From positions 1 to 64,000 of IMG/VR virus record IMGVR_UViG_3300032308_000833: 64,000 bases of DNA. One strand, 5' to 3'. The position numbers were made by a program, and so were the translations under genes. Below the pieces are notes generated by a model. It searched no databases and was not told the origin of the DNA. It saw nothing but the letters and a program-made list of their open reading frames with translations. The DNA is from a virus. Below, one piece after another: positions 14,139 to 30,313 of this stretch (the stretch's first letter is position 1; every line of letters begins with the position of its first letter).

Positions 14139-14867
14139 ATGGCAATATCACGCAGCATGGGTTTTCCTATACAAGAAAAACAAAAAATTAATGCAGTTGA
14201 TCAGGAAACCCCACAACTACAATTTTTACCAGTCCCAGGACCACAAGGTGCACCAGGACCTCAAGGTGCAATGGGGCCACAAGGAATACAAGGTCCTAAA
14301 GGTGAAAAAGGTGACAAAGGTGATGCTGGTGCAGATGGAAAAAATGGCAAGAATGGTATAAACGGTAAAAATGGAGAAAGTTATTTTCCAGTTTACAAAC
14401 AACAACCAGGTTGGGCCAGTTACGAAGACACATCTTCTAAAATTTTTAGCATAGACCCATCCAGAGGTGAAAACGGATGGCACGATTTATACATTGACAA
14501 AAAAGGCATATCAAAAAACCAATCATTCCTACCATTAAACTGCAACACCCTTTACAACGAACAATCCAGAGTACTAACATTTAGAAGTTTAGAAATAGGA
14601 TCAACTGTTAGACTTACCTATAACTTTTCACTTGAAACCTTTATTAACAATACTGAATTTTGGTTTGCTACCGTATACCCCGAAATTGACAAATCAGTTC
14701 TAACAATGGTTGGATCATTTAAATACCAAGGAATCTTTGACCTAACAGTTGACCAAACCATACACATAGAAAATAAAGAAATGTGGTTTAACTTCTGCAG
14801 ACCATATGCAAAATCAGATCATTTAACAAACCTAATACTAAAAAAAATATATGTATCAGTTTCATAG
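14139..14867 (+). CDS. Collagen-like tail protein
   Basis: 242-aa protein after SD AAGGAGACG. Residues 34-79 are 16 uninterrupted Gly-X-Y triplets (GPQGAPGPQGAM... to GINGKNG), a collagen-like triple-helix stalk. It is preceded by a short adaptor segment and followed by a beta-rich globular C-terminal domain. Such trimeric stalks are common in phage tail fibres. P39 occupies a Y position (GAP), the site hydroxylated in true collagen. This is of interest because six oxygenase-like genes are encoded nearby. Role: virion fibre, probably host contact. Confidence 0.8.
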   Translation: MAISRSMGFPIQEKQKINAVDQETPQLQFLPVPGPQGAPGPQGAMGPQGIQGPKGEKGDKGDAGADGKNGKNGINGKNGESYFPVYKQQPGWASYEDTSSKIFSIDPSRGENGWHDLYIDKKGISKNQSFLPLNCNTLYNEQSRVLTFRSLEIGSTVRLTYNFSLETFINNTEFWFATVYPEIDKSVLTMVGSFKYQGIFDLTVDQTIHIENKEMWFNFCRPYAKSDHLTNLILKKIYVSVS

Positions 14868-17047: not shown

Positions 17048-17962
17048 ATGGCATTATTTGGAAAACTAGTTAAATACGTTGTAAAAAAAGGAATGAAACT
17101 GGTTCCTAATTTTATTGGAAGAACAAGTGCACAGGCTCAAGCAGATGTTGTATCTGAAGGTTTTGTTTTAGGTAATGTAACCACTACAGTTTCTGGAGAA
17201 CCTGCTGAATTAGCAAACGATGGATTAATTGTTGAGCAGATTCCCGCAGTTACAACACCAGCAGATTATGAAGCACCTGTTGATTTAACCGTAAGACAGT
17301 TTAGTTTTACACCATTTGGTGTATTTGGATTTTCACCTTTCAACGTTTTTGGATTCTCACCTTTCAACGTTTTTGGATTCTCACCTTTTAACGTTTTTGG
17401 ATTTTCACCTTTTAGAGTTTTTGGATTCTCACCAACTACCTATACTTTTTCATTTTCACCAGTTCCATATTGCATAGATGAAAATACACCAGTATTAACT
17501 AAAGAAGGATATAAGTTAGCAAAAGATATAGTTGTTAACGATATATTAATGACTAAAACTTTTGATGGTTTACCTATAACAAACCATGAAGGTTTAAAAT
17601 CTTGGTCAGATACTATAGATAAAGAATATCATTCTGTAGAGTCTAAAGTAACAAACATTAAAAAAACTAATGTTCTTGAAACTATTATAATTAATGATGA
17701 TAAGTATAAAAGATTTTCTACTCAAGAAGATATTTTAATAATAAGAGAAGAAAAATTAATGTTTTGTGTTGCTTCTGAATTAAAAATAAATGATCAAATA
17801 GTAAAAAGTCCAACCGAAATGATTGGCGATCAAATAGCATGTATTGTTTATAAAATAGAAACAGTAAAAGAAGATAGAAATGTTTATGATTTTATGAGAG
17901 AACCATTTGGCTTGATTGTGGCAGATTCTTTACTTGTATATAATGCTTATCCAGTAGATTAA
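17048..17962 (+). CDS. PASTA domain - VFGFSPFN repeats - Hint domain protein
   Basis: 304 aa. Residues 18-84 look like a PASTA domain (VPNFIGRTSAQAQADVVSEG ... EQIPAV), a peptidoglycan-binding fold of actinobacterial kinases and PBPs. Residues 92-129 are five copies of the octapeptide VFGFSPFN/R. From C142 a Hint (Hedgehog/intein) domain begins: CIDENTPVLTKEGYKLAKDI with ND at the usual GD, then a beta-rich body and a C-terminal LIVADSLLVYNA. The nucleophile Cys and the terminal Asn are present. The block-B T-x-x-H is replaced (FSTQED), and the penultimate His is Tyr. Autoprocessing is therefore possible but may be altered. Likely a virion-surface protein. Confidence 0.75.
   Translation: MALFGKLVKYVVKKGMKLVPNFIGRTSAQAQADVVSEGFVLGNVTTTVSGEPAELANDGLIVEQIPAVTTPADYEAPVDLTVRQFSFTPFGVFGFSPFNVFGFSPFNVFGFSPFNVFGFSPFRVFGFSPTTYTFSFSPVPYCIDENTPVLTKEGYKLAKDIVVNDILMTKTFDGLPITNHEGLKSWSDTIDKEYHSVESKVTNIKKTNVLETIIINDDKYKRFSTQEDILIIREEKLMFCVASELKINDQIVKSPTEMIGDQIACIVYKIETVKEDRNVYDFMREPFGLIVADSLLVYNAYPVD
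17321..17434 (+). repeat. 24-bp tandem repeat encoding VFGFSPFN octapeptides
   Basis: Five near-identical 24-nt units, the last truncated to VFGFSP; wording differs mainly at third codon positions and at the last residue (N or R). Confidence 0.85.
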
Positions 17963-18534
17963 TCTTTAGGAAACTGATACATAAATTCTCTAGTTTTTGA
18001 AGTTATGCCTTTCCAAGGTCCCCAATTTTTTCCACCATCACTCATTATGTAAGCAACTTGACAGTTAATTGATGGGTTTAAAAGTTGACTTGTGTAGTCT
18101 AGATTATATTTTTCTTTTCTATCAGCATTAAGGTCACCAATCATATTTATTTGAAATAATCCGTATGATTTGTCTCCAGTGCTTTTATTGCCATTAAAGG
18201 CCAATGAGTTCCCCATTGATTCTTTTTTAACAATAGCCCAAGCCTCTACCAAATGCTTATTTTCAAAACCACAAGCAGATAACAAAGTTTTTAGTTCAAT
18301 GTCAGTAAGTTGTCCTTTATCCTGATATTCAGCAAGGGTTCTTACATTATCTCTAGATGGTTTATTTAAATGATCTGGTCTAGAAAGCAAAAAAACCGCC
18401 TCAGCGGTAAATGTTGCATATTTATCGTTTTTCAGGTTAGTTTCAACACCTTGAGCATTAGAAATGTTCAAAAATACTGAAGATAATCCAAGACTTGCGA
18501 GCAATCCTATTAAAAATTTTTTATCTTTTTTCAT
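17959..18534 (-). CDS. Secreted lysozyme / lytic transglycosylase (endolysin)
   Basis: 191 aa with a signal peptide (MKKDKKFLIGLLASLGLSS, likely cleaved after NISNA at 27). The lysozyme-like core has VKKESMGNSLAFNGN (E105 as catalytic acid) and SYGLFQINMIG (123-133), as in SLT/goose-type and Rpf-like muralytic folds, and YIMSDGGKNWGPW near the end. It should cut glycan strands of peptidoglycan outside the membrane. A leader peptide makes it independent of a pore-forming holin for export. It converges with the PASTA-Hint gene (4-nt overlap) and has its own consensus promoter. Confidence 0.82.
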   Translation of the reverse strand: MKKDKKFLIGLLASLGLSSVFLNISNAQGVETNLKNDKYATFTAEAVFLLSRPDHLNKPSRDNVRTLAEYQDKGQLTDIELKTLLSACGFENKHLVEAWAIVKKESMGNSLAFNGNKSTGDKSYGLFQINMIGDLNADRKEKYNLDYTSQLLNPSINCQVAYIMSDGGKNWGPWKGITSKTREFMYQFPKD

Positions 18535-18553
18535 AGTTCTCTCCTAAGAAAAC

Positions 18554-18576
18554 ATGACACCCTTGGTAGGTGTCAT
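18554..18576 (-). promoter_or_regulatory. Leader hairpin or operator of the endolysin gene
   Basis: Perfect 8-bp inverted repeat ATGACACC/GGTGTCAT around 7 nt, between the -10 and the SD (AGGAGAG). Could be a repressor site or an mRNA 5' stabilising hairpin. Confidence 0.55.
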
Positions 18577-18582
18577 ATATCA

Positions 18583-18611
18583 AGTATAACATCTATTTGC
18601 CAGTAAGTCAA
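18583..18611 (-). promoter_or_regulatory. Consensus promoter of the endolysin gene
   Basis: Minus strand TTGACT, 17 nt, TATACT with TGT before the -10 (extended). No TGTCAG element, so distinct from the early class. Confidence 0.75.
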
Positions 18612-18657
18612 ATCAAAAATGTCATATTAGTAAGATAATACAAAAAATTATTTAAAA

Positions 18658-18666
18658 TGATATAAT
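18658..18666 (+). promoter_or_regulatory. Extended -10 late promoter, leaderless output
   Basis: TGA plus TATAAT, 6 nt to the ATG at 18673, no -35. Confidence 0.75.
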
Positions 18667-18672
18667 ATTTGT

Positions 18673-19200
18673 ATGGCAACAGGTCAATCAAGCATATATA
18701 ATTTACCATACCCACAAGTTGATGATAGTGTAAACGTACATGGAGATATTGCTTCTTTAGCAACTTCATTAGATAATACACTTGCTGGACTTGGCTTATC
18801 TTACATGAAATTAGATGTAATTAATACATCTGGAGCATCAATTGCAGCAGGATCTCCTGTATTTATTAATGGTCATAATTCAGGACAAGATTTAACAACA
18901 GTAGGAAAAGCAATTCCTACAACAACATCACCAATATTAGGATTATTAAAATCTACAACAGCAAATAATGCACAAGGAATATGTGTAGTCTCTGGAGTAT
19001 TACCAGATGTTAATACATCTGAATTTGTTGCAGGTGATATTTTGTATGTAAAGACTGGTGGAGGTTTAACAAATGTTAGACCATCAGGTGGTGCAGGTGC
19101 AGTAGCAGTTTGTGCCTATGCAGATGCATCTAATGGAGTTCTTGTAGTTACCGCCAAAGGTAACGGTACTTGGGGAGCATTAAAGAACGGTCTTTCATAA
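18673..19200 (+). CDS. Fibre / minor tail protein
   Basis: 175-aa beta-rich, Gly/Ala/Thr-rich protein. The N-terminus (ATGQSSIYNLPYPQVDDSVN, then HGDIASLATSLDNTL) is of the kind I know from phage fibre proteins that begin with a short N-terminal anchoring region of the form YxLPYP. The body has alternating strands typical of a DUF2190-like or beta-helical decoration domain (GASIAAGSPVFINGHNSG, GGGLTNVRPSGG). Leaderless start. Role in the virion inferred from position. Confidence 0.6.
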   Translation: MATGQSSIYNLPYPQVDDSVNVHGDIASLATSLDNTLAGLGLSYMKLDVINTSGASIAAGSPVFINGHNSGQDLTTVGKAIPTTTSPILGLLKSTTANNAQGICVVSGVLPDVNTSEFVAGDILYVKTGGGLTNVRPSGGAGAVAVCAYADASNGVLVVTAKGNGTWGALKNGLS

Positions 19201-19215
19201 TTATTTATCCAAACA

Positions 19216-19224
19216 TGATATAAT
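19216..19224 (+). promoter_or_regulatory. Extended -10 late promoter, leaderless output
   Basis: TGA plus TATAAT, 6 nt to the ATG at 19231. Confidence 0.75.
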
Positions 19225-19230
19225 TACAAT

Positions 19231-19638
19231 ATGGCCATTCTCAGAAACTCATCTCAAGATTTATACAACGTAGGTGCTAAACCCCCAACCGTTAAATGGA
19301 CAGTAGTTCGTGGTGACACCTCAGCATTTAAAGTTTACGTAACAGACGACGCCCAAGCCCCTTTAGTTATAGCAGATTGGGATATTGCTATGAAAATTAA
19401 AAGACCAAACCTTGCTAAAGATCTTGGAGTAATAACGGATAATGCAAATACAATTATGCTTTTGACTCCTGCAGCAGATGCAGATGATTTGGCTGGAGAA
19501 TTTACAGTTAGACTTGCAGCAGAAGAATCACACAATCTTCAAACAGGAGATATTTTTGATATCGAGTTATCTACAGCAGAAATTGTTTGGACAGTTGCAC
19601 AAGGTAGCATGATTATACTTGAAGATGTAACTGACTAA
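19231..19638 (+). CDS. Small beta-sandwich minor tail protein (LtfC-like), copy 3
   Basis: 135 aa. VKWTVVRGDTSAFKVYVTDD gives the cleanest RGD core of the three copies, followed by IADWDIAMKIKRP and a C-terminal WTVAQGSMIILEDVTD. Shares strand order and the R(K)GD/ITVxxDVT frame with the genes at 13.7 and 14.9 kb. Its stop overlaps the next ATG. Expected to be a virion component. Confidence 0.68.
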   Translation: MAILRNSSQDLYNVGAKPPTVKWTVVRGDTSAFKVYVTDDAQAPLVIADWDIAMKIKRPNLAKDLGVITDNANTIMLLTPAADADDLAGEFTVRLAAEESHNLQTGDIFDIELSTAEIVWTVAQGSMIILEDVTD

Positions 19639-19862
19639 TGGCAACAGCAATTATTGTTGATGACAATAAACAAAAATTAAGACGTATTGAAACCTCAGAC
19701 TATTACCAAACCAAAATATCCTACAAGCCTAGCACGGTAGAGATAAATTACACTTTACCTTTTAGAATAAGATTTACAACAATAACAGTAGAAGGGTATG
19801 GTCCAGGTAATGTGCCCCCAATTCCTTTACAGGTTATTGGCTATAGCAACTATATACTGTAG
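19638..19862 (+). CDS. Small conserved tail-associated protein
   Basis: 74 aa ending in GYGPGNVPPIPLQVIGYSNYIL. I recognise the FRIRFT...GYGPxNVPPIxLxxIGxxNYIL pattern as a small family next to fibre genes in actinophages. It has no established function. Coupled to the LtfC-like gene by TAATG. A short -10-like TATACT near its end may serve the glycosyltransferase gene. Confidence 0.68.
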   Translation: MATAIIVDDNKQKLRRIETSDYYQTKISYKPSTVEINYTLPFRIRFTTITVEGYGPGNVPPIPLQVIGYSNYIL

Positions 19863-19871
19863 AATAGACAT

Positions 19872-20603
19872 ATGGCTAAAAAAGAAAAACCTAGCATATT
19901 TATAGCAACCCCAATGTACGGTGGGGTTTGTCATGGATACTTTATGAAAAGTGTCATGGGACTAGTAATGAAACTAACCTACAAAGGATACAAAGTAACC
20001 TTTAACGACTTGTACAACGAATCTTTAATTAACAGGGCCAGAAACACCCTTACAGAACTATTCTTAAGATCTGATGCTGACTACCTATTGTTTATTGATG
20101 GTGACGAAGGTTTTAACGCTGATGGTGTTATAGATATGATTGATACAGATTTAGATATTATTGGGGCTGCCGTGCCAATGAAAGCAATTAACTGGGCTAA
20201 CGTAGAAAAAGCAGCAGAATTAAAAAAACCTGATTTGAAAAGGTTTGGATCTTATGTAAACATAAACTTTGTTGATAGACAAGACTTACATAAGGTAGCA
20301 GATAATCCTAAAAAACCATTAGAGGTAAAAAACATAGGAACTGGTTTGCTGTTAATTAAACGTAATGTTTTTGAAACAATGAAAGAGCATGTTGGAAAAT
20401 ATAAAAGTGATCAACTAGATTTGGGTGGTATTAAAAAAGGTGAATACATTTATGATTTTTGGAAAACACAGGTAGACCCAGAAGAAGAAAGACTTTTGTC
20501 AGAAGACTACTATTTCTGTACACTATGGCGTAAACTTGGCGGTTCTGTGTATGTAGCACCACACGTTAAGGTAGTGCACGTAGGAACCTATATATTTGTT
20601 TAA
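19872..20603 (+). CDS. Phage glycosyltransferase (GT-A fold)
   Basis: 243 aa. IFIATPMYGGVCHGYF (9-24), FNDLYNESLINRARNTL and DADYLLFIDGDEGF (68-81) with the D76-x-D78 metal site are the hallmarks of a phage glycosyltransferase family related to GT2. A late EDYYFCTLWRKLGG may supply the catalytic base region. It is surrounded by fibre genes, so it may glycosylate virion proteins or modify host-surface sugars. No -35 promoter; a TATACT lies 13 nt upstream. Confidence 0.8.
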   Translation: MAKKEKPSIFIATPMYGGVCHGYFMKSVMGLVMKLTYKGYKVTFNDLYNESLINRARNTLTELFLRSDADYLLFIDGDEGFNADGVIDMIDTDLDIIGAAVPMKAINWANVEKAAELKKPDLKRFGSYVNINFVDRQDLHKVADNPKKPLEVKNIGTGLLLIKRNVFETMKEHVGKYKSDQLDLGGIKKGEYIYDFWKTQVDPEEERLLSEDYYFCTLWRKLGGSVYVAPHVKVVHVGTYIFV

Positions 20604-20627
20604 TTTGCAATAATTTTGTAAAAATAA

Positions 20628-20636
20628 TGTTATAAT
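20628..20636 (+). promoter_or_regulatory. Extended -10 late promoter, leaderless output
   Basis: TGT plus TATAAT, 6 nt to the ATG at 20643. Confidence 0.72.
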
Positions 20637-20642
20637 TTAGTC

Positions 20643-21089
20643 ATGGCACAACAATCAATTGCAACAGTAAAATCACGTTATGAGACTGGCGATAGGCCAT
20701 CTCAGCAAGACTATGAAGATTTAATTGACACTACCGCGTCCCAAGCAACACGCCTTGGTACTTTTGGTAATAACGACAATACAATATCAGAAATTCAGAA
20801 CACAACAATTGTTGATAGTTTTGATGCAACAGAGTGGAGAATGGTTAAGTACCTTGTTTCAATTTCTAAAACAACACAAGGCGATAACTATTTTTACGCA
20901 ACAGAATTGACCATATTGGTTGACGGAGCAGATGTTTCCGTAAGCGAATATGGGACAATAGACAACGATGGGAATATTGGAACCATAAGCGTCTCAAGGG
21001 CTGGAAATACAGTGGCTTTAACAATCACTCCAGACTCAGTAATAAAGCCAGTCACCTTGCGTTACGCACGCATGGGACTTAAGGCATAA
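20643..21089 (+). CDS. Short fibre protein with shared beta C-terminal domain
   Basis: 148 aa. N-terminal helix (ATVKSRYETGDRPSQQDYED) is a typical fibre attachment segment (GDxPxxxDFxxLIDT). The C-terminal about 90 residues (DATEWRMVKYLVSISKTT onward) match by eye the C-terminus of the 510-aa fibre that follows (DWALAEYRSAEFLVKVAY onward). The two proteins therefore share a receptor-tip or trimerisation domain. Leaderless. Confidence 0.65.
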   Translation: MAQQSIATVKSRYETGDRPSQQDYEDLIDTTASQATRLGTFGNNDNTISEIQNTTIVDSFDATEWRMVKYLVSISKTTQGDNYFYATELTILVDGADVSVSEYGTIDNDGNIGTISVSRAGNTVALTITPDSVIKPVTLRYARMGLKA

Positions 21090-21100
21090 GGAGATAAAAT

Positions 21101-22633
21101 ATGGCAACATTAAATAAAAATTTCAAGATTAAACATGGTTTAATCGTTGAAGGAACAACAGGTACAATTAACAACTTTGACATCTTGACAAAAAGTACAG
21201 ATGATCAAAACTACATTATAGACCTGGTTGGTGGAGACGCTTCATCAAACGCAGTAGCAAACACACTAGTACTTCGTGATGCAAATGCAAACTTTTTTGC
21301 AAATACAATCACAGCAGACTTAGTTGGAGATGTAACTGGTCAAGTATCAGACATTTCTAATCATGATTCTGATGATGTAGCAGAAGGTACAACAAACCTT
21401 TACTTTACAAACGAAAGAGCAGCAAATGCAACTGCAGCATCCTATGATGCTATAGGCTCAGCAGCAAATGCTTATTCAAATGCAACTGCTTACACAGATC
21501 TAGAAGTAGGTAATGCAATTGCTGACTTAGAAGACTATGCAGATTTTGCAGCAGGAAATGCTTTAGCAAATGCAAACTCATACACTGACAACGCAATTTC
21601 TAATGCAGTCTCTGACTTAGAAGAATACACTGACTTTGCAGTAGGCAATGCAGTGGCTGACTTAGAAGATTATGCAGACTTTGCAGTAGGTAATGCAATT
21701 GCTGATTTAACAAACAATGCACCAGCGTTATTAGATACACTTAACGAAATCGCAGAAGCAATTGGTGACGATGCAAACTTTGTTGGAACAATAACCAACT
21801 TAGTTGCAGAAAAACAAAATGCTTTGATTGCAGGAACTGACATTGATATCGTAGGAAACACAATTTCCTTTACTGGAAGTTACGATCCTTCAGGCTCAGC
21901 AGCAAATGCTTATTCAAATGCAACTGCTTACACAGATCTAGAAATAGGAAATGCATATGCAGATTTAGAACTGTTTGCTAACAACGCAGCAGGTAATGCT
22001 TTAGCAAATGCAAATTCTTACACAGATAATGCAATTGGTCTTTTGTCAACAACTGATATCGAAGAAGGAACAAACGAATACTTCACAGATACAAGGGCTA
22101 AAGAGTCAGCAGCAAGTTTGTTAACAATGGCAACTCTAACAAATATCTCAATCACAGGTAACTCTGAAGGATTGGTAATTACAGCAGAAAATGGTGTAGG
22201 AGACTCTAACACAGATGCGTTGGCTGAAGGTTCAACAAACCTTTATTTCACAGATCAACGTGCAGTAGATGCTCTTGAAGCAATAATACCTAATTTCACT
22301 GAAATTGATATTAACACAGTTGCTAGACAAGTTGCAGCAACAGTAAATGCTCCAACAGCAAGCACAGTTACAGCAATTGACTGGGCATTAGCAGAATATC
22401 GCTCAGCCGAATTCTTGGTAAAAGTTGCTTACGGTGCACACACAGAAGTTTCAAAAGTTATCTTAACTCTTGATACTTCAAACAACATCGCAATCACAGA
22501 ATACGCAATTGTAGGAACAAATGGATCCGCATCCACAATTTCTGCAGACGTAAACGGAACAGATGTAAGACTAAGAGTAGCAACAGCCAATAACAACTCA
22601 GATGTAACAGTTGTTGGAACATTGTTAGTCTAG
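21101..22633 (+). CDS. Long repetitive tail fibre protein
   Basis: 510 aa after SD AAGGAGAT. The centre is built of repeats of the type NALANANSYTDNAI and AVGNAVADLEDYADF (about residues 120-220 and again 270-310), expected to form a trimeric alpha-helical coiled coil. DVAEGTTNLYFTxxRA modules, known from phage fibre shafts, occur three times. The C-terminal 95 residues are the beta domain shared with the preceding gene. Likely a host-recognition fibre. Confidence 0.75.
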   Translation: MATLNKNFKIKHGLIVEGTTGTINNFDILTKSTDDQNYIIDLVGGDASSNAVANTLVLRDANANFFANTITADLVGDVTGQVSDISNHDSDDVAEGTTNLYFTNERAANATAASYDAIGSAANAYSNATAYTDLEVGNAIADLEDYADFAAGNALANANSYTDNAISNAVSDLEEYTDFAVGNAVADLEDYADFAVGNAIADLTNNAPALLDTLNEIAEAIGDDANFVGTITNLVAEKQNALIAGTDIDIVGNTISFTGSYDPSGSAANAYSNATAYTDLEIGNAYADLELFANNAAGNALANANSYTDNAIGLLSTTDIEEGTNEYFTDTRAKESAASLLTMATLTNISITGNSEGLVITAENGVGDSNTDALAEGSTNLYFTDQRAVDALEAIIPNFTEIDINTVARQVAATVNAPTASTVTAIDWALAEYRSAEFLVKVAYGAHTEVSKVILTLDTSNNIAITEYAIVGTNGSASTISADVNGTDVRLRVATANNNSDVTVVGTLLV

Positions 22634-22654
22634 TAAAAAATTAGGGGGCAGTAA

Positions 22655-23107
22655 ATGACCACAAATCTAAAAGATTTTAAAGTCAAGAATGGATTAGTCG
22701 TAACTAACGGCGGTTCATTTGGAAACGCGGTAGCAGTAGGAGAACCTACATTAGGAACTCACGCTACTACTAAAGATTACGTAGATTCTGTAACTGGTAC
22801 ACCAGTATCAAATACTGCCCCTCTTTCCCCAGACAATGGGGATATGTGGTTTGATACCACGGTAGAAAGATTAAAAGTTTATTATGAAACTGATTGGTTT
22901 ACAATTGCAACAAGCAATGATGTACAAAATATTCCAGATCACATTCATGATACAGCAATTGATGGTAACGGAAGAATTGTTACAGTATTCTGGGATGCTG
23001 AACAATATGACGATCCACAAATTTCTACATTAAGTGGTGGAACACCGTTTTCAAATTCATGGGCAGCAGTATTTGATGGTGGAAATCCAGACAGTGAATT
23101 TAATTAA
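22655..23107 (+). CDS. Tail fibre accessory protein
   Basis: 150 aa starting TTNLKDFKVKNGLVVTNGGS, the same KxFKxKxGLxV shaft-start motif seen in the 510-aa fibre. It has a THATTKDYVDSV segment and a P(D)NGDMWFDTTxxRLKVYY module common in phage fibres. Ends in a beta-rich acidic tail. Preceded by TTAGGGGG as SD. Probably a short fibre or fibre-associated protein. Confidence 0.6.
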   Translation: MTTNLKDFKVKNGLVVTNGGSFGNAVAVGEPTLGTHATTKDYVDSVTGTPVSNTAPLSPDNGDMWFDTTVERLKVYYETDWFTIATSNDVQNIPDHIHDTAIDGNGRIVTVFWDAEQYDDPQISTLSGGTPFSNSWAAVFDGGNPDSEFN

Positions 23108-23122
23108 AACATTTTAAAAAAC

Positions 23123-23131
23123 TGTTATAAT
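23123..23131 (+). promoter_or_regulatory. Extended -10 late promoter with leader hairpin
   Basis: TGT plus TATAAT, then a leader with a GTAGGT-AAG-ACCTAC hairpin (23148-23162) 5 nt before the SD AGGGAGAT region of the gene at 23176. Confidence 0.6.
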
Positions 23132-23175
23132 TAAAACAAAATCAAAAGTAGGTAAGACCTACACAGGGAGATAAA

Positions 23176-24900
23176 ATGGCAACAAGGATGCTACAACGTA
23201 GAGGAACTGCTACACAGTGGGCTAATGCTAACCCTACTCTGGGTTCTGGAGAAATTGGTTTTGAAACCGACACAGGACAATTTAAAATAGGTGACAACTC
23301 TACAGCATGGGATGATTTGCCATACTTTAAAAATATAGAAGATTTAGGCGGAAACCTAGACGATTACATTTTATTAGAACAAAAAGGTGCAGCAAACGGT
23401 GTTGCCACATTAGATGGAAGCAATTTAATCCCTGTAGCACAAATTCCAAATACTATTGCTAGAATTACAGATGTAGGAAACGCAATTTCTAACGCTATAT
23501 CAGATTTAACAAATAACGCACCAGCAATACTAGATACCCTTGCAGAACTAGCAAATGCCATCAATGATGATGGAGATTTTTTCTTAACTATTTCAAACAG
23601 CATTAATAACAGTTTAGATGCCGCTAATGAATACACAGATAATAACATAAATACTTTAGCAAACAACGTTGCAGAAGAAGCAGAATTATTAGCAAACACT
23701 GTTGCAAATAATCTTTCTTGTGCTGTTGCAAGTTTACAAGAAGAAATTGGAAATGCTGTAACTGAATCAGAAGCATATACCGATAACGTTGCTGCTCATA
23801 CTTTAGGAAATGCACAATTTTATACTGATGGTGAAGTAGACATACTTGCAAACTCTATAACAGATGCACTATCAAATGCACATTCATACACAGATACTGA
23901 AGTTTCAGATCATAACCTAGAAACATTAAATGTGCACGGTATATCAAATACAGCAGTACTTGTAACATTAACAGATTTGAGCAATCACGAAACTGACACA
24001 TCAAACGTACATGGTATCACAAATACACTAGCAATAGTGTTTACAGATGATGCAAGACTTTCTGATGCAAGAACACCACTTGCTAACTCTGTTACAAATA
24101 ACTCTATATCAGGAACAATTGATCAAAATAAGATCACAAACCTTGCAACAACACTAGGAAATCTAGCATCCCTTTCAGGTGCAGCGTTTACTGGTAACGT
24201 TTCAACAACTGGTAATTTGACAGTAGACGGAGATTTCACTGTAAGTGGATCTAATGTTCTTGTATCTGCAACACAAATTCAAATAGAGGACACCTTACTA
24301 CAACTTGGTCACACAAATGCTAACAACGTAGCAGATCTAGGTTTAGTAGTTTCTTATAACGATGGAACACAAAAACATGCTGGTATCGTCAAAGACGTTA
24401 CAGATAGCAAATGGAAATTGTTTGATGGTGTTACATCAGAACCTGGAACAACAGTTAACTTTGGACAAGGTTCACTAGATGTTTTGGCACTTTTGACACT
24501 TGAGGCAAACTCAATCACTGCAACATCAGATATCACTGCAAACGGAATCGTATTTGCAGACGGTACACAAAGATTAGAAGGTGTACCTTCACGGACACCT
24601 ATTATTCAAAAGACAGCAAGTTATACTTTGTCAGCATTGACTGAAAGAGATGATTTAATAGAAATGGATAGCGTTAGTGCAACAACGCTGACTATTCCTC
24701 TTAACTCAGCAGTAGCGTTTCCAGTTGGAACATCTATTGATATTCTTCAAACAAATACTGGTCAAGTAACAATCGCAGGAGACGCAGGAGTAACAGTAAA
24801 TGCTACACCAGGTCTTAAACTACGCACACGGTGGTCATCTTGCACTCTATTTAAGAGAGCAACTAACACCTGGGTTGTATACGGCGACTTAACTGCATAA
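23176..24900 (+). CDS. Tail fibre with Mtd-N-like domain
   Basis: 574 aa. Residues 1-50 (LQRRGTATQWANANPTLGSG, then EIGFETDTGQFKIGDNSTAW) match the N-terminal domain of major tropism determinant type fibres. A long coiled-coil shaft with NAxSDLTNNAPAxLDTLAELANAI and YTDxxVxxLxN repeats follows, then VHGI(S/T)NTA modules and the C-terminal tip domain shared with the 216-aa fibre at 16.4 kb. By size and layout it is a main receptor-binding fibre candidate. No reverse transcriptase is present, so no diversity-generating system is implied. Confidence 0.78.
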   Translation: MATRMLQRRGTATQWANANPTLGSGEIGFETDTGQFKIGDNSTAWDDLPYFKNIEDLGGNLDDYILLEQKGAANGVATLDGSNLIPVAQIPNTIARITDVGNAISNAISDLTNNAPAILDTLAELANAINDDGDFFLTISNSINNSLDAANEYTDNNINTLANNVAEEAELLANTVANNLSCAVASLQEEIGNAVTESEAYTDNVAAHTLGNAQFYTDGEVDILANSITDALSNAHSYTDTEVSDHNLETLNVHGISNTAVLVTLTDLSNHETDTSNVHGITNTLAIVFTDDARLSDARTPLANSVTNNSISGTIDQNKITNLATTLGNLASLSGAAFTGNVSTTGNLTVDGDFTVSGSNVLVSATQIQIEDTLLQLGHTNANNVADLGLVVSYNDGTQKHAGIVKDVTDSKWKLFDGVTSEPGTTVNFGQGSLDVLALLTLEANSITATSDITANGIVFADGTQRLEGVPSRTPIIQKTASYTLSALTERDDLIEMDSVSATTLTIPLNSAVAFPVGTSIDILQTNTGQVTIAGDAGVTVNATPGLKLRTRWSSCTLFKRATNTWVVYGDLTA

Positions 24901-24904
24901 CATT

Positions 24905-24913
24905 TGATATAAT
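24905..24913 (+). promoter_or_regulatory. Extended -10 late promoter
   Basis: TGA plus TATAAT, then AAGGAGAT as SD for the gene at 24931. Confidence 0.7.
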
Positions 24914-24930
24914 AAGACTAAGGAGATAAC

Positions 24931-26190
24931 ATGGCAATAGGTAAAAAAGTAGGTAAGAAGTCTCAAGGTTCTAATGACTTTTTAATGCCAAGAACACCAA
25001 CTATTGGAACAGCAACAAACGTTGGAACAGGGCGGGCATTTAACAATGGTGCAGCCACAGTAACATTTACAGCAGATCCTACCTATGCAGCAGACTCTTT
25101 TACAGTTACATCAACTCCAGGTAGTTTTACAGCAACAGGAGCATCATCTCCAATTACAGTTACAGGATTACAATCAGATACAGCATATACTTTTAAAGTA
25201 ACTGCAACAAATACTTATGGAACATCAGGTGAATCAGAGGCATCTAACTCTATTACAGCAACAACTGTTCCAGCAACACCAGCAGCACCAAGTGCATCAT
25301 CACCAAACGCTGATCAAGATGTAATTTCATGGGATGCACCAGCAAACGGTGGATCAGTAATAACAAATTATCATTGGCAATCAAATGAAGCCCCTGTTAA
25401 AGAAGGAGATACTGCGACTACGCTTAACGCAACAGTAGGGCAAGAAGCAGGAACAGCACAACGGTACAAAGTTTATGCAACTAACGCTAACGGAAACTCA
25501 GAATATTCTGCATTATCAGCAGAAGTAACAACAACATTTTCTTTCGTACCTTTTGGTGTGTTTGGTTTTTCACCATTTACAGTGTTTGGTTTCTCTCCGT
25601 TTAACGTGTTTGGTTTTTCACCATTTAACGTATTTGGTTTCTCACCATTCAGAGTATTTGGTTTCTCACCATTCAGAGTATTTGGTTTCTCACCAACTAC
25701 ATACTGTGTAGATGAAGATGCACCAGTTCTTACAACAACTGGAAATAAAAAAGCAAAAGACATTGAACTTGGAGATAAATTAATTGTAAAAGCATTTGAA
25801 GAAATGCCAGTTGGAGATCTTTACAAAATTGTACTTTGGAAAAAAAGAGGTAACCTAACAAATTACAGAGAATTAGAAGCAGATGTAACTAAGATTACAC
25901 CAACAGTAGTACATGAAACAGTTATGTTTAATAATGATCCAAACATGAGATTTTCATTACTAGAAGATATGTTTGTAATTAAAAATGGTTTATATGGTTT
26001 TGTTTCTTCAAGAGAAATTAAACCTGGAGATAAAATTATTACAAGAGATTCTTTGATGGTAGTAGAAACTGTTGAAATAGTTAACGAAACAAGAACTGTT
26101 TACAGTTTTGGAAGATATCCAATTGGATTAGTTATAGCAGGAGGATTAGTTCATTATAACGACTACTCTCCTTCAGAAATACCAGATTAA
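24931..26190 (+). CDS. FN3 domains - VFGFSPFN repeats - Hint domain protein
   Basis: 419 aa. Two fibronectin type III domains: about 20-113 (AATVTFTADPTYAAD, TVTGLQSDTAYTFKVTATN) and 114-202 (VISWDAPANGGS ... YKVYATNANGNS). Then six VFGFSPF(N/T/R) octapeptides (210-255) and a Hint domain from C259 (CVDEDAPVLTTTGNKKAKDI, GD at 281-282) to LVIAGGLVHYND. The repeat and Hint parts are clear homologues of the PASTA-containing protein at 17.0 kb, while the N-terminal domains differ. Block-B His is again missing (FSLLEDMF). This modular swapping suggests a surface-display or self-processing cassette. Confidence 0.78.
   Translation: MAIGKKVGKKSQGSNDFLMPRTPTIGTATNVGTGRAFNNGAATVTFTADPTYAADSFTVTSTPGSFTATGASSPITVTGLQSDTAYTFKVTATNTYGTSGESEASNSITATTVPATPAAPSASSPNADQDVISWDAPANGGSVITNYHWQSNEAPVKEGDTATTLNATVGQEAGTAQRYKVYATNANGNSEYSALSAEVTTTFSFVPFGVFGFSPFTVFGFSPFNVFGFSPFNVFGFSPFRVFGFSPFRVFGFSPTTYCVDEDAPVLTTTGNKKAKDIELGDKLIVKAFEEMPVGDLYKIVLWKKRGNLTNYRELEADVTKITPTVVHETVMFNNDPNMRFSLLEDMFVIKNGLYGFVSSREIKPGDKIITRDSLMVVETVEIVNETRTVYSFGRYPIGLVIAGGLVHYNDYSPSEIPD
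25558..25695 (+). repeat. 24-bp tandem repeat encoding VFGFSPFN octapeptides
   Basis: Six units with the final one ending FGFSPTTYC; codons differ from the 17.3 kb array at many third positions, so the peptide is conserved beyond the DNA. Confidence 0.85.
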
Positions 26191-26242: not shown

Positions 26243-26908
26243 ATGAGACAAGGGCCACCACCAGAATTACGTGGTATTCAGCAATCAATTAAACCACATA
26301 AGTTTTTTGAAAGACATCTAAACAATGATTTAGATTTATTAGCAAATGAATTAACTGACAGATATCAAAGTATTGAAAAAGTAGAACTAGATGGTATTAC
26401 TCCAGTTAACAGTAAAGATTATTGGCAAGAATCTGGTAGCGTTTCTACAGTTAAATGGAGAGAGTATAACGTATTTCAGTTTCACATTGATGGTATATAT
26501 GAGTTATATAAAAATATTCAAGACATGACTAAAGAGGCTTGTGAATATTACGAGATAGATTTTGAAAAACAAAGATTTATGTTGCAAGGATGGTTTAATA
26601 TTAATCATAAGAAAAAAGGAAAACTAGACTGGCATGATCATGGTCATACTGGTGCTCCAAATAATTTTCATGGATATTACTGTGTAAAAGCAGAACCATC
26701 ATCAACTTATTATAGAGTTTTTGGTAAAGATATGGAAAATAAAAATATTGATAATCGTGCTATTTTTTCAGAAATGGGACATCCTCATGCACAAGGTGAT
26801 TGGGATTGGGAAGGACCAAGAATTACAGTTGCATATGATGTTGTAACTTTGGAAGAGTTAAAACATGCTGGTAAAGATCATGAGCAACACTGGATACCTT
26901 TGATATGA
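26243..26908 (+). CDS. 2OG-Fe(II) oxygenase-like protein, second family, copy 1
   Basis: 221 aa. QGWFNINHKK then DWHDHGHTGAPNNFHGYYCV (about 129-148) and SEMGHPHAQGDWDWEGPRIT (177-195) resemble the putative 2OG-Fe(II) oxygenase proteins of cyanophages (2OG-FeII_Oxy_5-like), with H131/H133, H180/H182 and R193 as likely ligands. The classical HxD is not obvious, so the metal site may differ. Overlaps the next gene by ATGA. Target unknown. Confidence 0.58.
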   Translation: MRQGPPPELRGIQQSIKPHKFFERHLNNDLDLLANELTDRYQSIEKVELDGITPVNSKDYWQESGSVSTVKWREYNVFQFHIDGIYELYKNIQDMTKEACEYYEIDFEKQRFMLQGWFNINHKKKGKLDWHDHGHTGAPNNFHGYYCVKAEPSSTYYRVFGKDMENKNIDNRAIFSEMGHPHAQGDWDWEGPRITVAYDVVTLEELKHAGKDHEQHWIPLI

Positions 26909-27534
26909 TAAAGGAAAAACCAACACATAAATTTTTTGAAAGATATGTTGACAATGACCTAACGCAACTTTCAAGATATTTGTTAAAACTTGAAAAAGAT
27001 TTATTTGAAGGGGTCTATCCAAAAGTTTCTAAAGAGTTTGCTAATAATATTGGTGGTGTTCATAATTTAGGAACAAAGTTTAATATTTTTCAGTGCTATA
27101 GTCCACAAATTCACAAATTGTTTTCTGCACTTAGAGAATTAACTATAGATGCTTGTGAGTATTACGATATTGATTATAAAAAACAATCTTACATGGTTCA
27201 GGGTTGGTTTAACACAGACGGAATAGCAGAACCACCAGTTAATGAATCAACTCATTATCACGATCATCTAGGTGGTACTGGTGCACCAAACTTTCATGGT
27301 TATTACTGTGTAGATGCTGAGCCATCTTTTACTTATTATAAAATTGGTGGTCAAGATAAAGAATCAATTCAAAATATTAACAAGAACAATAGAGCCATAT
27401 TGTCAGAAACTGGTCACCCACATGGAATAGGTCCTTGGCCTTTTGATAAACCAAGAATTACTATTGCTTATGATATATCTCCAGTTACTCATATGAGTGG
27501 AAGTGAATTACAACATTGGGTTCCTTTACCTTAA
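26905..27534 (+). CDS. 2OG-Fe(II) oxygenase-like protein, second family, copy 2
   Basis: 209 aa, clear tandem duplicate of the preceding gene: HKFFERYVDNDL near the start, MVQGWFNTDG, HYHDHLGGTGAPNFHGYYC (117-135), SETGHPHGIG and KPRITIAYD. Candidate ligands H119/D120/H121, H171/H173, R184. Four-base overlap (ATGA) indicates coupling. The pair may modify related substrates or form a heteromer. Confidence 0.58.
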   Translation: MIKEKPTHKFFERYVDNDLTQLSRYLLKLEKDLFEGVYPKVSKEFANNIGGVHNLGTKFNIFQCYSPQIHKLFSALRELTIDACEYYDIDYKKQSYMVQGWFNTDGIAEPPVNESTHYHDHLGGTGAPNFHGYYCVDAEPSFTYYKIGGQDKESIQNINKNNRAILSETGHPHGIGPWPFDKPRITIAYDISPVTHMSGSELQHWVPLP

Positions 27535-29782: not shown

Positions 29783-30313
29783 ATGGAAGATTTTAAGTCT
29801 CAAATCAAGTATGTTAAGGGTTTTATGAACCCTCAAGAAGCAGGTTTGGTAACGGAATATGCAAAAAAACATCAAGAACTATTTTCTAATTATGGAAATA
29901 GTGAACAAGAGTTTACGGTTCATACCTATCATGAAATAAATGATCTAGATCCTGCTATTCTTAATATAATTCAAAATGTTGCATTGAAAGTTTATGATTT
30001 TGTTTTAAATAACTATGATTCTGAATTTGAAAATTTTATTGATGAAAAAACACATATTGCAAAATTTGTTGAAGGAAGAGGAATGCATGAACATTTTGAT
30101 GCTTCTAGGCCAAAAGATATAGCAACTTTAGTTTATTTAAATGATGAATATCAAGGTGGAGACATATACTTTCCAAAATATGAAATGTCTTTTAAGCCAG
30201 AACCTGGAGATCTATTATGTTTTCCAGACAATACAAACTTTATTCACGGTGTTAAGCCAATAGTTAAGGGAACAAGGTTTACATTACCTCGTTGGTTTAC
30301 ACGCATTGTGTGA
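29783..30313 (+). CDS. 2OG-Fe(II) oxygenase, prolyl-4-hydroxylase-like
   Basis: 176 aa. Classic P4H-type layout: H104-x-D106 in MHEHFDAS, ATLVYLNDEYQGGDIYFP (114-131), the loop KPEPGDLLCFPD, distal H155 in FIHGVKP and R165 in KGTRFTLPRWF. Expected chemistry: 2-oxoglutarate and O2 dependent hydroxylation, typically of a peptidyl proline. It follows the reductase gene by 2 nt and precedes structural genes, so a virion protein (for instance the collagen-like fibre) is a candidate substrate; this is inference. Confidence 0.85.
   Translation: MEDFKSQIKYVKGFMNPQEAGLVTEYAKKHQELFSNYGNSEQEFTVHTYHEINDLDPAILNIIQNVALKVYDFVLNNYDSEFENFIDEKTHIAKFVEGRGMHEHFDASRPKDIATLVYLNDEYQGGDIYFPKYEMSFKPEPGDLLCFPDNTNFIHGVKPIVKGTRFTLPRWFTRIV

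What the first reader, a model, noticed from the sequence alone, without database searches (positions are those of the whole stretch)
17048..26190. VFGFSPFN repeat plus Hint domain cassettes on swapped N-terminal domains
Two proteins 7 kb apart (17048-17962 and 24931-26190) have different N-terminal domains (PASTA; two FN3). Both then carry an identical-style array of 5-6 octapeptides VFGFSPF(N/R/T), ending FGFSPTTY, followed by a Hint (Hedgehog/intein) domain. The Hint start is textbook (C-x4-T/A-PVLT-x2-G-x3-AKDI-x2-(G/N)D). Yet the TxxH histidine is lost in both (FSTQED, FSLLED), and the usual terminal HN is YN or HYN. The DNA wording of the repeats differs at third positions, so the peptide is under selection. 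An autoprocessing or ester-forming module that releases, crosslinks or lipid-like modifies a surface-displayed repeat on a phage fibre would be new to my knowledge. Seen: domains and repeats. Inferred: activity.
Basis: partly seen in the sequence, partly recalled or inferred. Interest (0 to 1): 0.85.

Follow-up and report, generated by a model that had tools for sequence, protein, structure and literature searches.

The report
Self-cutting caps on phage surface proteins
Two freshwater-phage surface proteins end in a sticky, aromatic-rich repeat followed by a Hedgehog/intein-fold domain; relatives show that its cutting residue is never lost although its usual helper histidine often is, which suggests a self-removing cap of a kind not, to my knowledge, described on phage fibres.

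Summary
Both proteins (17048-17962, 24931-26190) carry a VFGFSPF octapeptide array followed directly by a Hint-fold domain: AlphaFold pLDDT 92; best PDB matches are a bacterial intein-like domain, inteins and Hedgehog. The block is not a local oddity. A Hint-only scan of IMG/VR and two repeat scans gave 126 different Hint domains, and 122 sit straight after an F/P-rich aromatic array (FGFSPF, FFAPPGF, FFPP, YSFTP).

Residue 1 is Cys (110) or Ser (16), never anything else. The block-B histidine position is H, Q or E, with at least 10 changes on the tree against one at residue 1. So the 'lost' histidine is a recurrent state, and the nucleophile is what selection keeps. In Glu-type members, including both window proteins, the residue before the cut is usually Phe or Tyr; bulky -1 residues are known to rescue His-less inteins in the laboratory.

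Other proteins with the same arrays stop right after them, carry short Cys-rich tails, or in one case a Peptidase_S74 chaperone.

Best reading: a C-terminal, single-turnover cap that cuts itself off and leaves the aromatic array as the new C-terminus. Activity is inferred, not shown. New variant of a known kind.

The parts
17048..17962 (+). gene of PASTA + FGFSP array + Hint protein, 304 aa
17102..17293 (+). PASTA domain, residues 19-82
   Evidence: PF03793, 21.8 bits, just below cut-off
17321..17440 (+). VFGFSP octapeptide array, 5 units
17468..17473 (+). predicted scissile junction Tyr141-Cys142
   Evidence: alignment, residue 1 always C or S
17471..17959 (+). Hint domain, residues 142-304
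   Evidence: AF2 and Foldseek of the paralogue in the same alignment (31, 35, 36)
17717..17728 (+). block B, STQE in place of TxxH
17939..17944 (+). block F/G end, Tyr-Asn in place of His-Asn
24931..26190 (+). gene of FN3-FN3 + FGFSP array + Hint protein, 419 aa
25054..25248 (+). first FN3 domain, residues 42-106
   Evidence: PF00041, 33.7 bits
25273..25536 (+). second FN3 domain, approximately residues 115-202
   Evidence: second stretch; strands 121-185
25558..25701 (+). VFGFSP octapeptide array, 6 units; AF2 pLDDT below 50
25702..25707 (+). predicted scissile junction Tyr258-Cys259
25705..26187 (+). Hint domain, residues 259-419; pLDDT 91.9
25954..25965 (+). block B, SLLE in place of TxxH
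26152..26160 (+). block F/G end, His-Tyr-Asn

Best explanation
The two proteins are phage surface (probably tail or neck appendage) proteins. Their C-terminal Hint domain is a single-turnover autoprocessing cap. After folding, the Cys at Hint residue 1 (C142, C259) attacks the peptide bond before it (N-to-S acyl shift). The thioester is then resolved by water or another nucleophile, so the Hint domain is released and the aromatic FGFSPF array becomes the new C-terminus (...FGFSPTTY in the FN3 protein). Shown: Hint fold, position of the Cys at the exact junction, its invariance, linkage to aromatic arrays, and sister proteins whose genes simply end after the array. Inferred: cleavage itself, that Glu plus a bulky -1 residue replaces the histidine, that the cap keeps a sticky array soluble or unassembled until cleavage, and location on the virion.
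For: Fold: pLDDT 91.9 and Foldseek hits to the C. thermocellum BIL 2lwy (E 5e-6), T. thermophila BIL2, CDC21-1/RadA inteins and Hedgehog 1at0. Residue 1 is C 110 or S 16 of 126; among 150 well-filled columns only this one and a V/I column are confined to two residues, and the median is 11 kinds per column. Minimum changes on a 104-domain tree: residue 1, one (C/S); block-B T/S 6; block-B H 10; penultimate 7; last 5. All 16 Ser-1 members keep the His; Cys-1 members have H 21, Q 40, E 49, as expected if the weaker nucleophile needs the helper. The -1 residue is Phe/Tyr in 35 of 49 Glu-type and 0 of 21 Cys/His-type domains; a bulky -1 residue rescues the N-S acyl shift in His-less inteins (PMC6333167), and Cys/Ser-1 is among the few omnipresent residues of class 1 inteins (PMC7664689). 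Array proteins without Hint mostly end within 15 aa of the array (58 ORFs), and one carries Peptidase_S74 starting at ...PPGFK|SDLRDK, while several tailless ones stop at ...PPGFK or PPAFK. 122 of 126 Hint domains directly follow an aromatic array.
Against: No cleavage has been observed. Block-B Glu has no direct experimental precedent, known to me, as a catalyst. The -1/Glu link is mostly one clade; independent pairs are too few to be significant, and the arrays are aromatic anyway. Residue 1 could be kept for structure. The C-terminal Asn is not strictly kept (YH, YG, YS, HP, IA variants). The chaperone role rests on one S74 example and on analogy. No virion proteomics.
Confidence: 0.5

Rival explanations
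1. Cleavage-linked ligation: the thioester is resolved not by water but by an amine or alcohol of another molecule (virion protein, cell-surface glycan or lipid), as Hedgehog does with cholesterol, so the repeat tail is covalently attached to something.
For: Same fold and N-terminal nucleophile as Hedgehog Hint; the N-terminal step is what is conserved while the C-terminal Asn is not strictly kept.
Against: No sterol-recognition-like extension after the Hint: the window proteins end 5-9 residues later. No candidate acceptor found. Not testable here.
Confidence: 0.15
2. The Hint is a catalytically weak or dead structural domain: a C-terminal folding or trimerisation cap or receptor-binding knob that stays on the mature protein; catalytic residues drift (H to Q to E, HN to YN).
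For: Block B and the C-terminal residues change 5-10 times on the tree; relatives without Hint exist; Hint dN/dS is low (dN 0.05-0.08 against dS 0.45-0.73 for the three nearest relatives), as for any folded domain.
Against: Residue 1 is the one catalytic position that never leaves Cys/Ser while its neighbours change freely; the Ser-1 clade keeps His in every member.
Confidence: 0.28
3. The block is mainly a recombination cassette: the DNA-level repeats let phages swap N-terminal (PASTA, FN3) and C-terminal (Hint, Cys-rich, none) modules; processing is secondary.
For: The same arrays are joined to different N- and C-terminal modules within and between phages.
Against: Between the two arrays of the window synonymous sites are near saturation (pS 0.72), so there is no sign of recent DNA exchange. 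It does not explain the strict nucleophile. It can be true alongside the main explanation.
Confidence: 0.07

Closest known systems
Bacterial intein-like (BIL) domains, e.g. C. thermocellum BIL 2lwy (types A and B)
   Same: Hint fold, N-terminal Cys/Ser, no intein-type +1 nucleophile in the window proteins, expected outcome cleavage rather than splicing (PMC4031507).
   Different: Sits at the C-terminus of phage proteins after aromatic arrays; block-B His replaced by Glu or Gln in 89 of 126; end YN, HD, YH and so on.
Hedgehog C-terminal autoprocessing domain (1at0)
   Same: C-terminal Hint that cuts only at its N-terminal side; Foldseek TM 0.68-0.74.
   Different: TxxH absent in the window proteins; no sterol-recognition region; no evidence for a lipid acceptor.
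Inteins lacking block-B histidine (Tko/Pab/Pho CDC21-1) and DnaB M86 G-1F/H73A
   Same: N-S acyl shift reported without the His; bulky -1 residue helps (PMC6333167, PMC4031507). 6rpp, 6rpq and 6fre are among the Foldseek hits.
   Different: Those splice and are rare or engineered; here a large natural family in which His is optional and splicing is not expected.
Peptidase_S74 intramolecular chaperone of tail spikes and fibres
   Same: C-terminal domain removed by itself from phage fibre proteins; found once here after the same kind of array (L239).
   Different: Unrelated fold and chemistry.
Erwinia phage pEa_SNUABM_5 gp108, 'putative tail fiber protein', C-terminal Hint
   Same: C-terminal Hint on a collagen-type fibre protein with C1, THEH, HN.
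   Different: No aromatic array; canonical residues; 29% identity over part of the length to an FFAPP-type Hint.

Membership tests
Hint (Hedgehog/intein) fold superfamily | Hint fold | tested here: met
   AF2 pLDDT 91.9; 47 PDB matches at E <= 0.001, all inteins, BILs or Hedgehog in the listed top 50
Hint (Hedgehog/intein) fold superfamily | Cys or Ser at residue 1 | tested here: met
   126 of 126
Hint (Hedgehog/intein) fold superfamily | block B TxxH (usual but not universal) | tested here: not met
   window SxxE; family H 37, Q 40, E 49
Hint (Hedgehog/intein) fold superfamily | curated Pfam Hint models above cut-off | tested here: not met
   Hint_2, Intein_splicing, Hint and PT-HINT hits all below gathering score
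Intein (splicing) | C-extein with +1 Cys/Ser/Thr after terminal Asn | tested here: not met
   window +1 residues are Ala and Asp, and the protein ends 5-9 residues later
Bacterial intein-like domain (type A) | C-terminal His-Asn | tested here: not met
   window has Tyr-Asn; HN is present in other subfamilies
Bacterial intein-like domain (type B) | cleavage without splicing | not testable with these tools
   needs expression
Hedgehog Hint | transfer to cholesterol | not testable with these tools
   no sterol-recognition region visible; needs biochemistry
Peptidase_S74 chaperone | S74 domain | tested here: not met
   no S74 hit in the window proteins; present in L239

The most novel reading that the evidence does not exclude
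A widespread class of uncultured phages caps sticky aromatic (FGFSPF, FFAPPGF) tails of display proteins with Hint domains that remove themselves by a Cys1-plus-Glu (or Gln) mechanism helped by a bulky -1 residue: a natural counterpart of the laboratory-made His-less inteins, and a solution parallel to Peptidase_S74 for transient C-terminal caps on phage fibres.
Probability: 0.33. Interest if true: 0.78.

Novelty: new variant of a known kind. Interest (0 to 1): 0.62.

Why it matters
The block-B histidine is called the most conserved intein residue, and a 2014 review counted two inteins without it (PMC4031507). Here is a natural family of over a hundred Hint domains in which that position moves between His, Gln and Glu while the nucleophile never leaves Cys/Ser. 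That makes the proposed compensation by the -1 residue directly testable in natural proteins. An isolate with a canonical version (Erwinia phage pEa_SNUABM_5 gp108) offers a place to test virion processing.

Tried and rejected
Intein (splicing) reading: rejected, no +1 nucleophile and almost no C-extein. Close relatives among isolate phages: tblastn found none with the window domains; one FFAPP-type relative found only weak hits in Erwinia jumbo phages. Cellular genomes: the Hint profile gave no confirmed relative and the FGFSP pattern no match in GTDB representative contigs, so no host could be named. A single broad alignment was too diverse for a collection scan. Literature: no paper with VFGFSP, none on Hint-capped fibres in the open library; Hint mentions in the two phage papers read were about inteins in terminase or ribonucleotide reductase. 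The link between His loss and aromatic -1 residue was tested on the tree and is not significant for lack of independent pairs. A fold for the FGFSP array was sought: AF2 leaves it below 50 as a monomer, so no structure is claimed. An earlier count said 12 of 22 records hold paired Hint genes; the count is 11.

Full report
WHAT IS THERE. The window is the first 64 kb of an 80.8-kb IMG/VR virus record. Its structural region includes a portal, an S78 protease and an HK97-type capsid protein; the capsid's nearest isolate matches are Streptomyces phages at about 39% identity. Upstream of the portal lies a run of appendage-like genes (collagen, Mtd_N, FN3, PASTA). The two proteins of the finding are at the stated coordinates. 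The first is PASTA (residues 19-82) - 5 VFGFSP units - Hint from C142; the second is FN3-FN3 - 6 VFGFSP units - Hint from C259. The repeat DNA word is found only at these two places in the record. Within each array the six core codons differ only at synonymous sites, and between the arrays pS is 0.72 with pN 0, so the peptide, not the DNA, is kept.

THE HINT FOLD IS REAL. [quoted passage not shown] thermocellum BIL at E 0.003-0.007. AlphaFold2 gives pLDDT 91.9 for residues 259-419. Foldseek against the PDB returns the BIL 2lwy, CDC21-1 inteins, Tetrahymena BIL2, RadA, DnaB and RecA inteins and the Hedgehog autoprocessing domain 1at0. Against viral models, the closest are uncultured Caudovirales proteins named FN3, PASTA or Hint. 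In the full-length model the FN3 and Hint parts are confident and the array (203-257) is not.

THE BLOCK IS A WIDESPREAD PHAGE MODULE. A scan of IMG/VR with Hint-only patterns found 83 relatives; every complete one read out lies right after an aromatic array, although the arrays differ: FGFSPF, FFAPPGF, FFPP, YSFTP. In 122 of 126 the 30 residues before residue 1 are at least 40% F/P/Y/W. Array-bearing ORFs end in Hint (139), within 15 residues of the array (58), in short Cys-rich tails (13), in other tails (4) or are cut by the contig end (6); these are counts from capped scans, not abundances. One of the other tails is a Peptidase_S74 domain that begins directly at ...GPPGFK|SDLRDK, and several tailless proteins stop at ...PPGFK or ...PPAFK. 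Eleven of 22 Hint-positive records searched whole hold two Hint genes on one strand, 8.2-11.3 kb apart, as in the window; in 9 of the 11 both copies are of the same catalytic class.

WHICH RESIDUES ARE KEPT. Residue 1 is Cys in 110 and Ser in 16 of 126, nothing else. The block-B position 3 residues after T/S is Glu 49, Gln 40, His 37, nothing else. The last residue of the motif is Asn 92, Asp 16, and others 18. Among 150 well-filled columns (median 11 different residues) only residue 1 and one V/I column are confined to two residues. On a tree of 104 domains built without these positions, the least number of changes is 1 for residue 1, 6 for the block-B T/S, 10 for the His position, 7 and 5 for the last two residues. 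All 16 Ser-1 domains keep the His and end in Asp. Some domains are fully canonical (C1, TLEH, HN, protein end one residue later). The spacing C/S-x4-T-x-V/I is kept without gaps in the Cys and Ser types that I read by eye, so the Ser is unlikely to be an alignment artefact (sequences).

MECHANISM. A nucleophile kept at residue 1 while the C-terminal Asn drifts points to the N-terminal reaction (N-to-S/O acyl shift, then cleavage), not to splicing; the window proteins have no +1 nucleophile and almost nothing after the Hint. [quoted passage not shown] In this family the -1 residue is Phe, Tyr or Trp in 35 of 49 Glu-type domains (both window proteins have Tyr), 7 of 40 Gln-type, 0 of 21 Cys/His-type and 3 of 16 Ser/His-type. 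This fits, but most Glu-type domains form one clade, the arrays are aromatic anyway, and the tree holds too few independent losses for a significant test. I put cleavage before C142 and C259, as one mechanism with release of the array, at 0.5; the array's C-terminus then resembles that of sister proteins whose genes end there. The purpose I find most likely is a transient cap: it keeps a hydrophobic aromatic tail soluble or unassembled until the protein is folded or in place, as intramolecular chaperones do for other fibres (PMC10579305). That purpose is inference, and so is the location on the virion.

RIVALS. Hedgehog-like transfer to an acceptor (0.15), a non-cleaving structural cap (0.28) and a pure recombination cassette (0.07) are weighed in their sections. 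The structural reading is the serious one; the strict residue 1 and the His retained in every Ser-1 domain speak against it.

KNOWN AND NEW. Works like: BIL domains and Hedgehog Hint for chemistry, S74 for purpose. Member of: the Hint fold superfamily, by fold and residue 1, yes; intein, no; BIL type A, no for the window proteins (YN end); BIL type B, not testable. Hint domains at the end of phage fibre proteins are not unique: Erwinia phage pEa_SNUABM_5 gp108 is a collagen-type protein annotated as tail fibre with a canonical C-terminal Hint, and databases hold uncultured phage proteins named Hint. I found no paper that describes the array-Hint module, but only open papers were searched. Hence 'new variant of a known kind'.

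Noticed in passing
L239:9634-10341 (-): PASTA-like protein with FFxPP array followed directly by Peptidase_S74 (E 7e-10) at ...GPPGFK|SDLRDK; tailless relatives stop at ...PPGFK or PPAFK, so a stop codon may give the same C-terminus as self-cleavage.
   Followed up: partly
L043-L047, L048, L115, L224, L232, L256, L275, L279, L318: Array proteins whose Hint is replaced by short Cys-rich tails (for example GGDYTRCTSADVAAYPSFCNFSNCCGAGSGAACATCSCRAC); function unknown.
   Followed up: no
L117, L128, L175, L183, L201: PASTA-type array proteins with a thrombospondin-1-like WSEWSxW...TRTRTR stretch inside the array, ending FNFAPWG.
   Followed up: no
L350, L358: Second Hint copy in two genomes follows a different low-complexity array (TINTINT..., TQNTQN...) and has TYEH or TFEH block B.
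   Followed up: no
window 29783-30313: 2OG-Fe(II) oxygenase (PF13640, E 1e-10) near the array genes and a collagen-like gene (14139-14867); a prolyl hydroxylase acting on these repeats is conceivable.
   Followed up: no
window 26243-27534: Two adjacent similar genes (221 and 209 aa) with HxD...H and RITxAYD motifs, oxygenase-like by eye, no Pfam hit; directly downstream of the FN3-Hint gene.
   Followed up: partly
window 17959-18534 (-): Lysozyme-like SLT_3 gene on the minus strand overlapping the end of the PASTA-Hint gene by 4 bases.
   Followed up: no
window 23176-24900: Protein with a Major tropism determinant N-terminal domain (E 9e-12) directly upstream of the FN3-Hint gene; no search made for a diversity-generating retroelement.
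   Followed up: no
L266: FFxPP protein with a 22-aa tail SFSSIKVKRDIIEVVNTSQIED that looks like the start of an S74 domain cut short.
   Followed up: no
Ser-1 Hint domains (L153, L121, L149, L193, L151, L251 and others): Ser at residue 1, His in block B and Asp at the end always occur together (16 of 16).
   Followed up: partly
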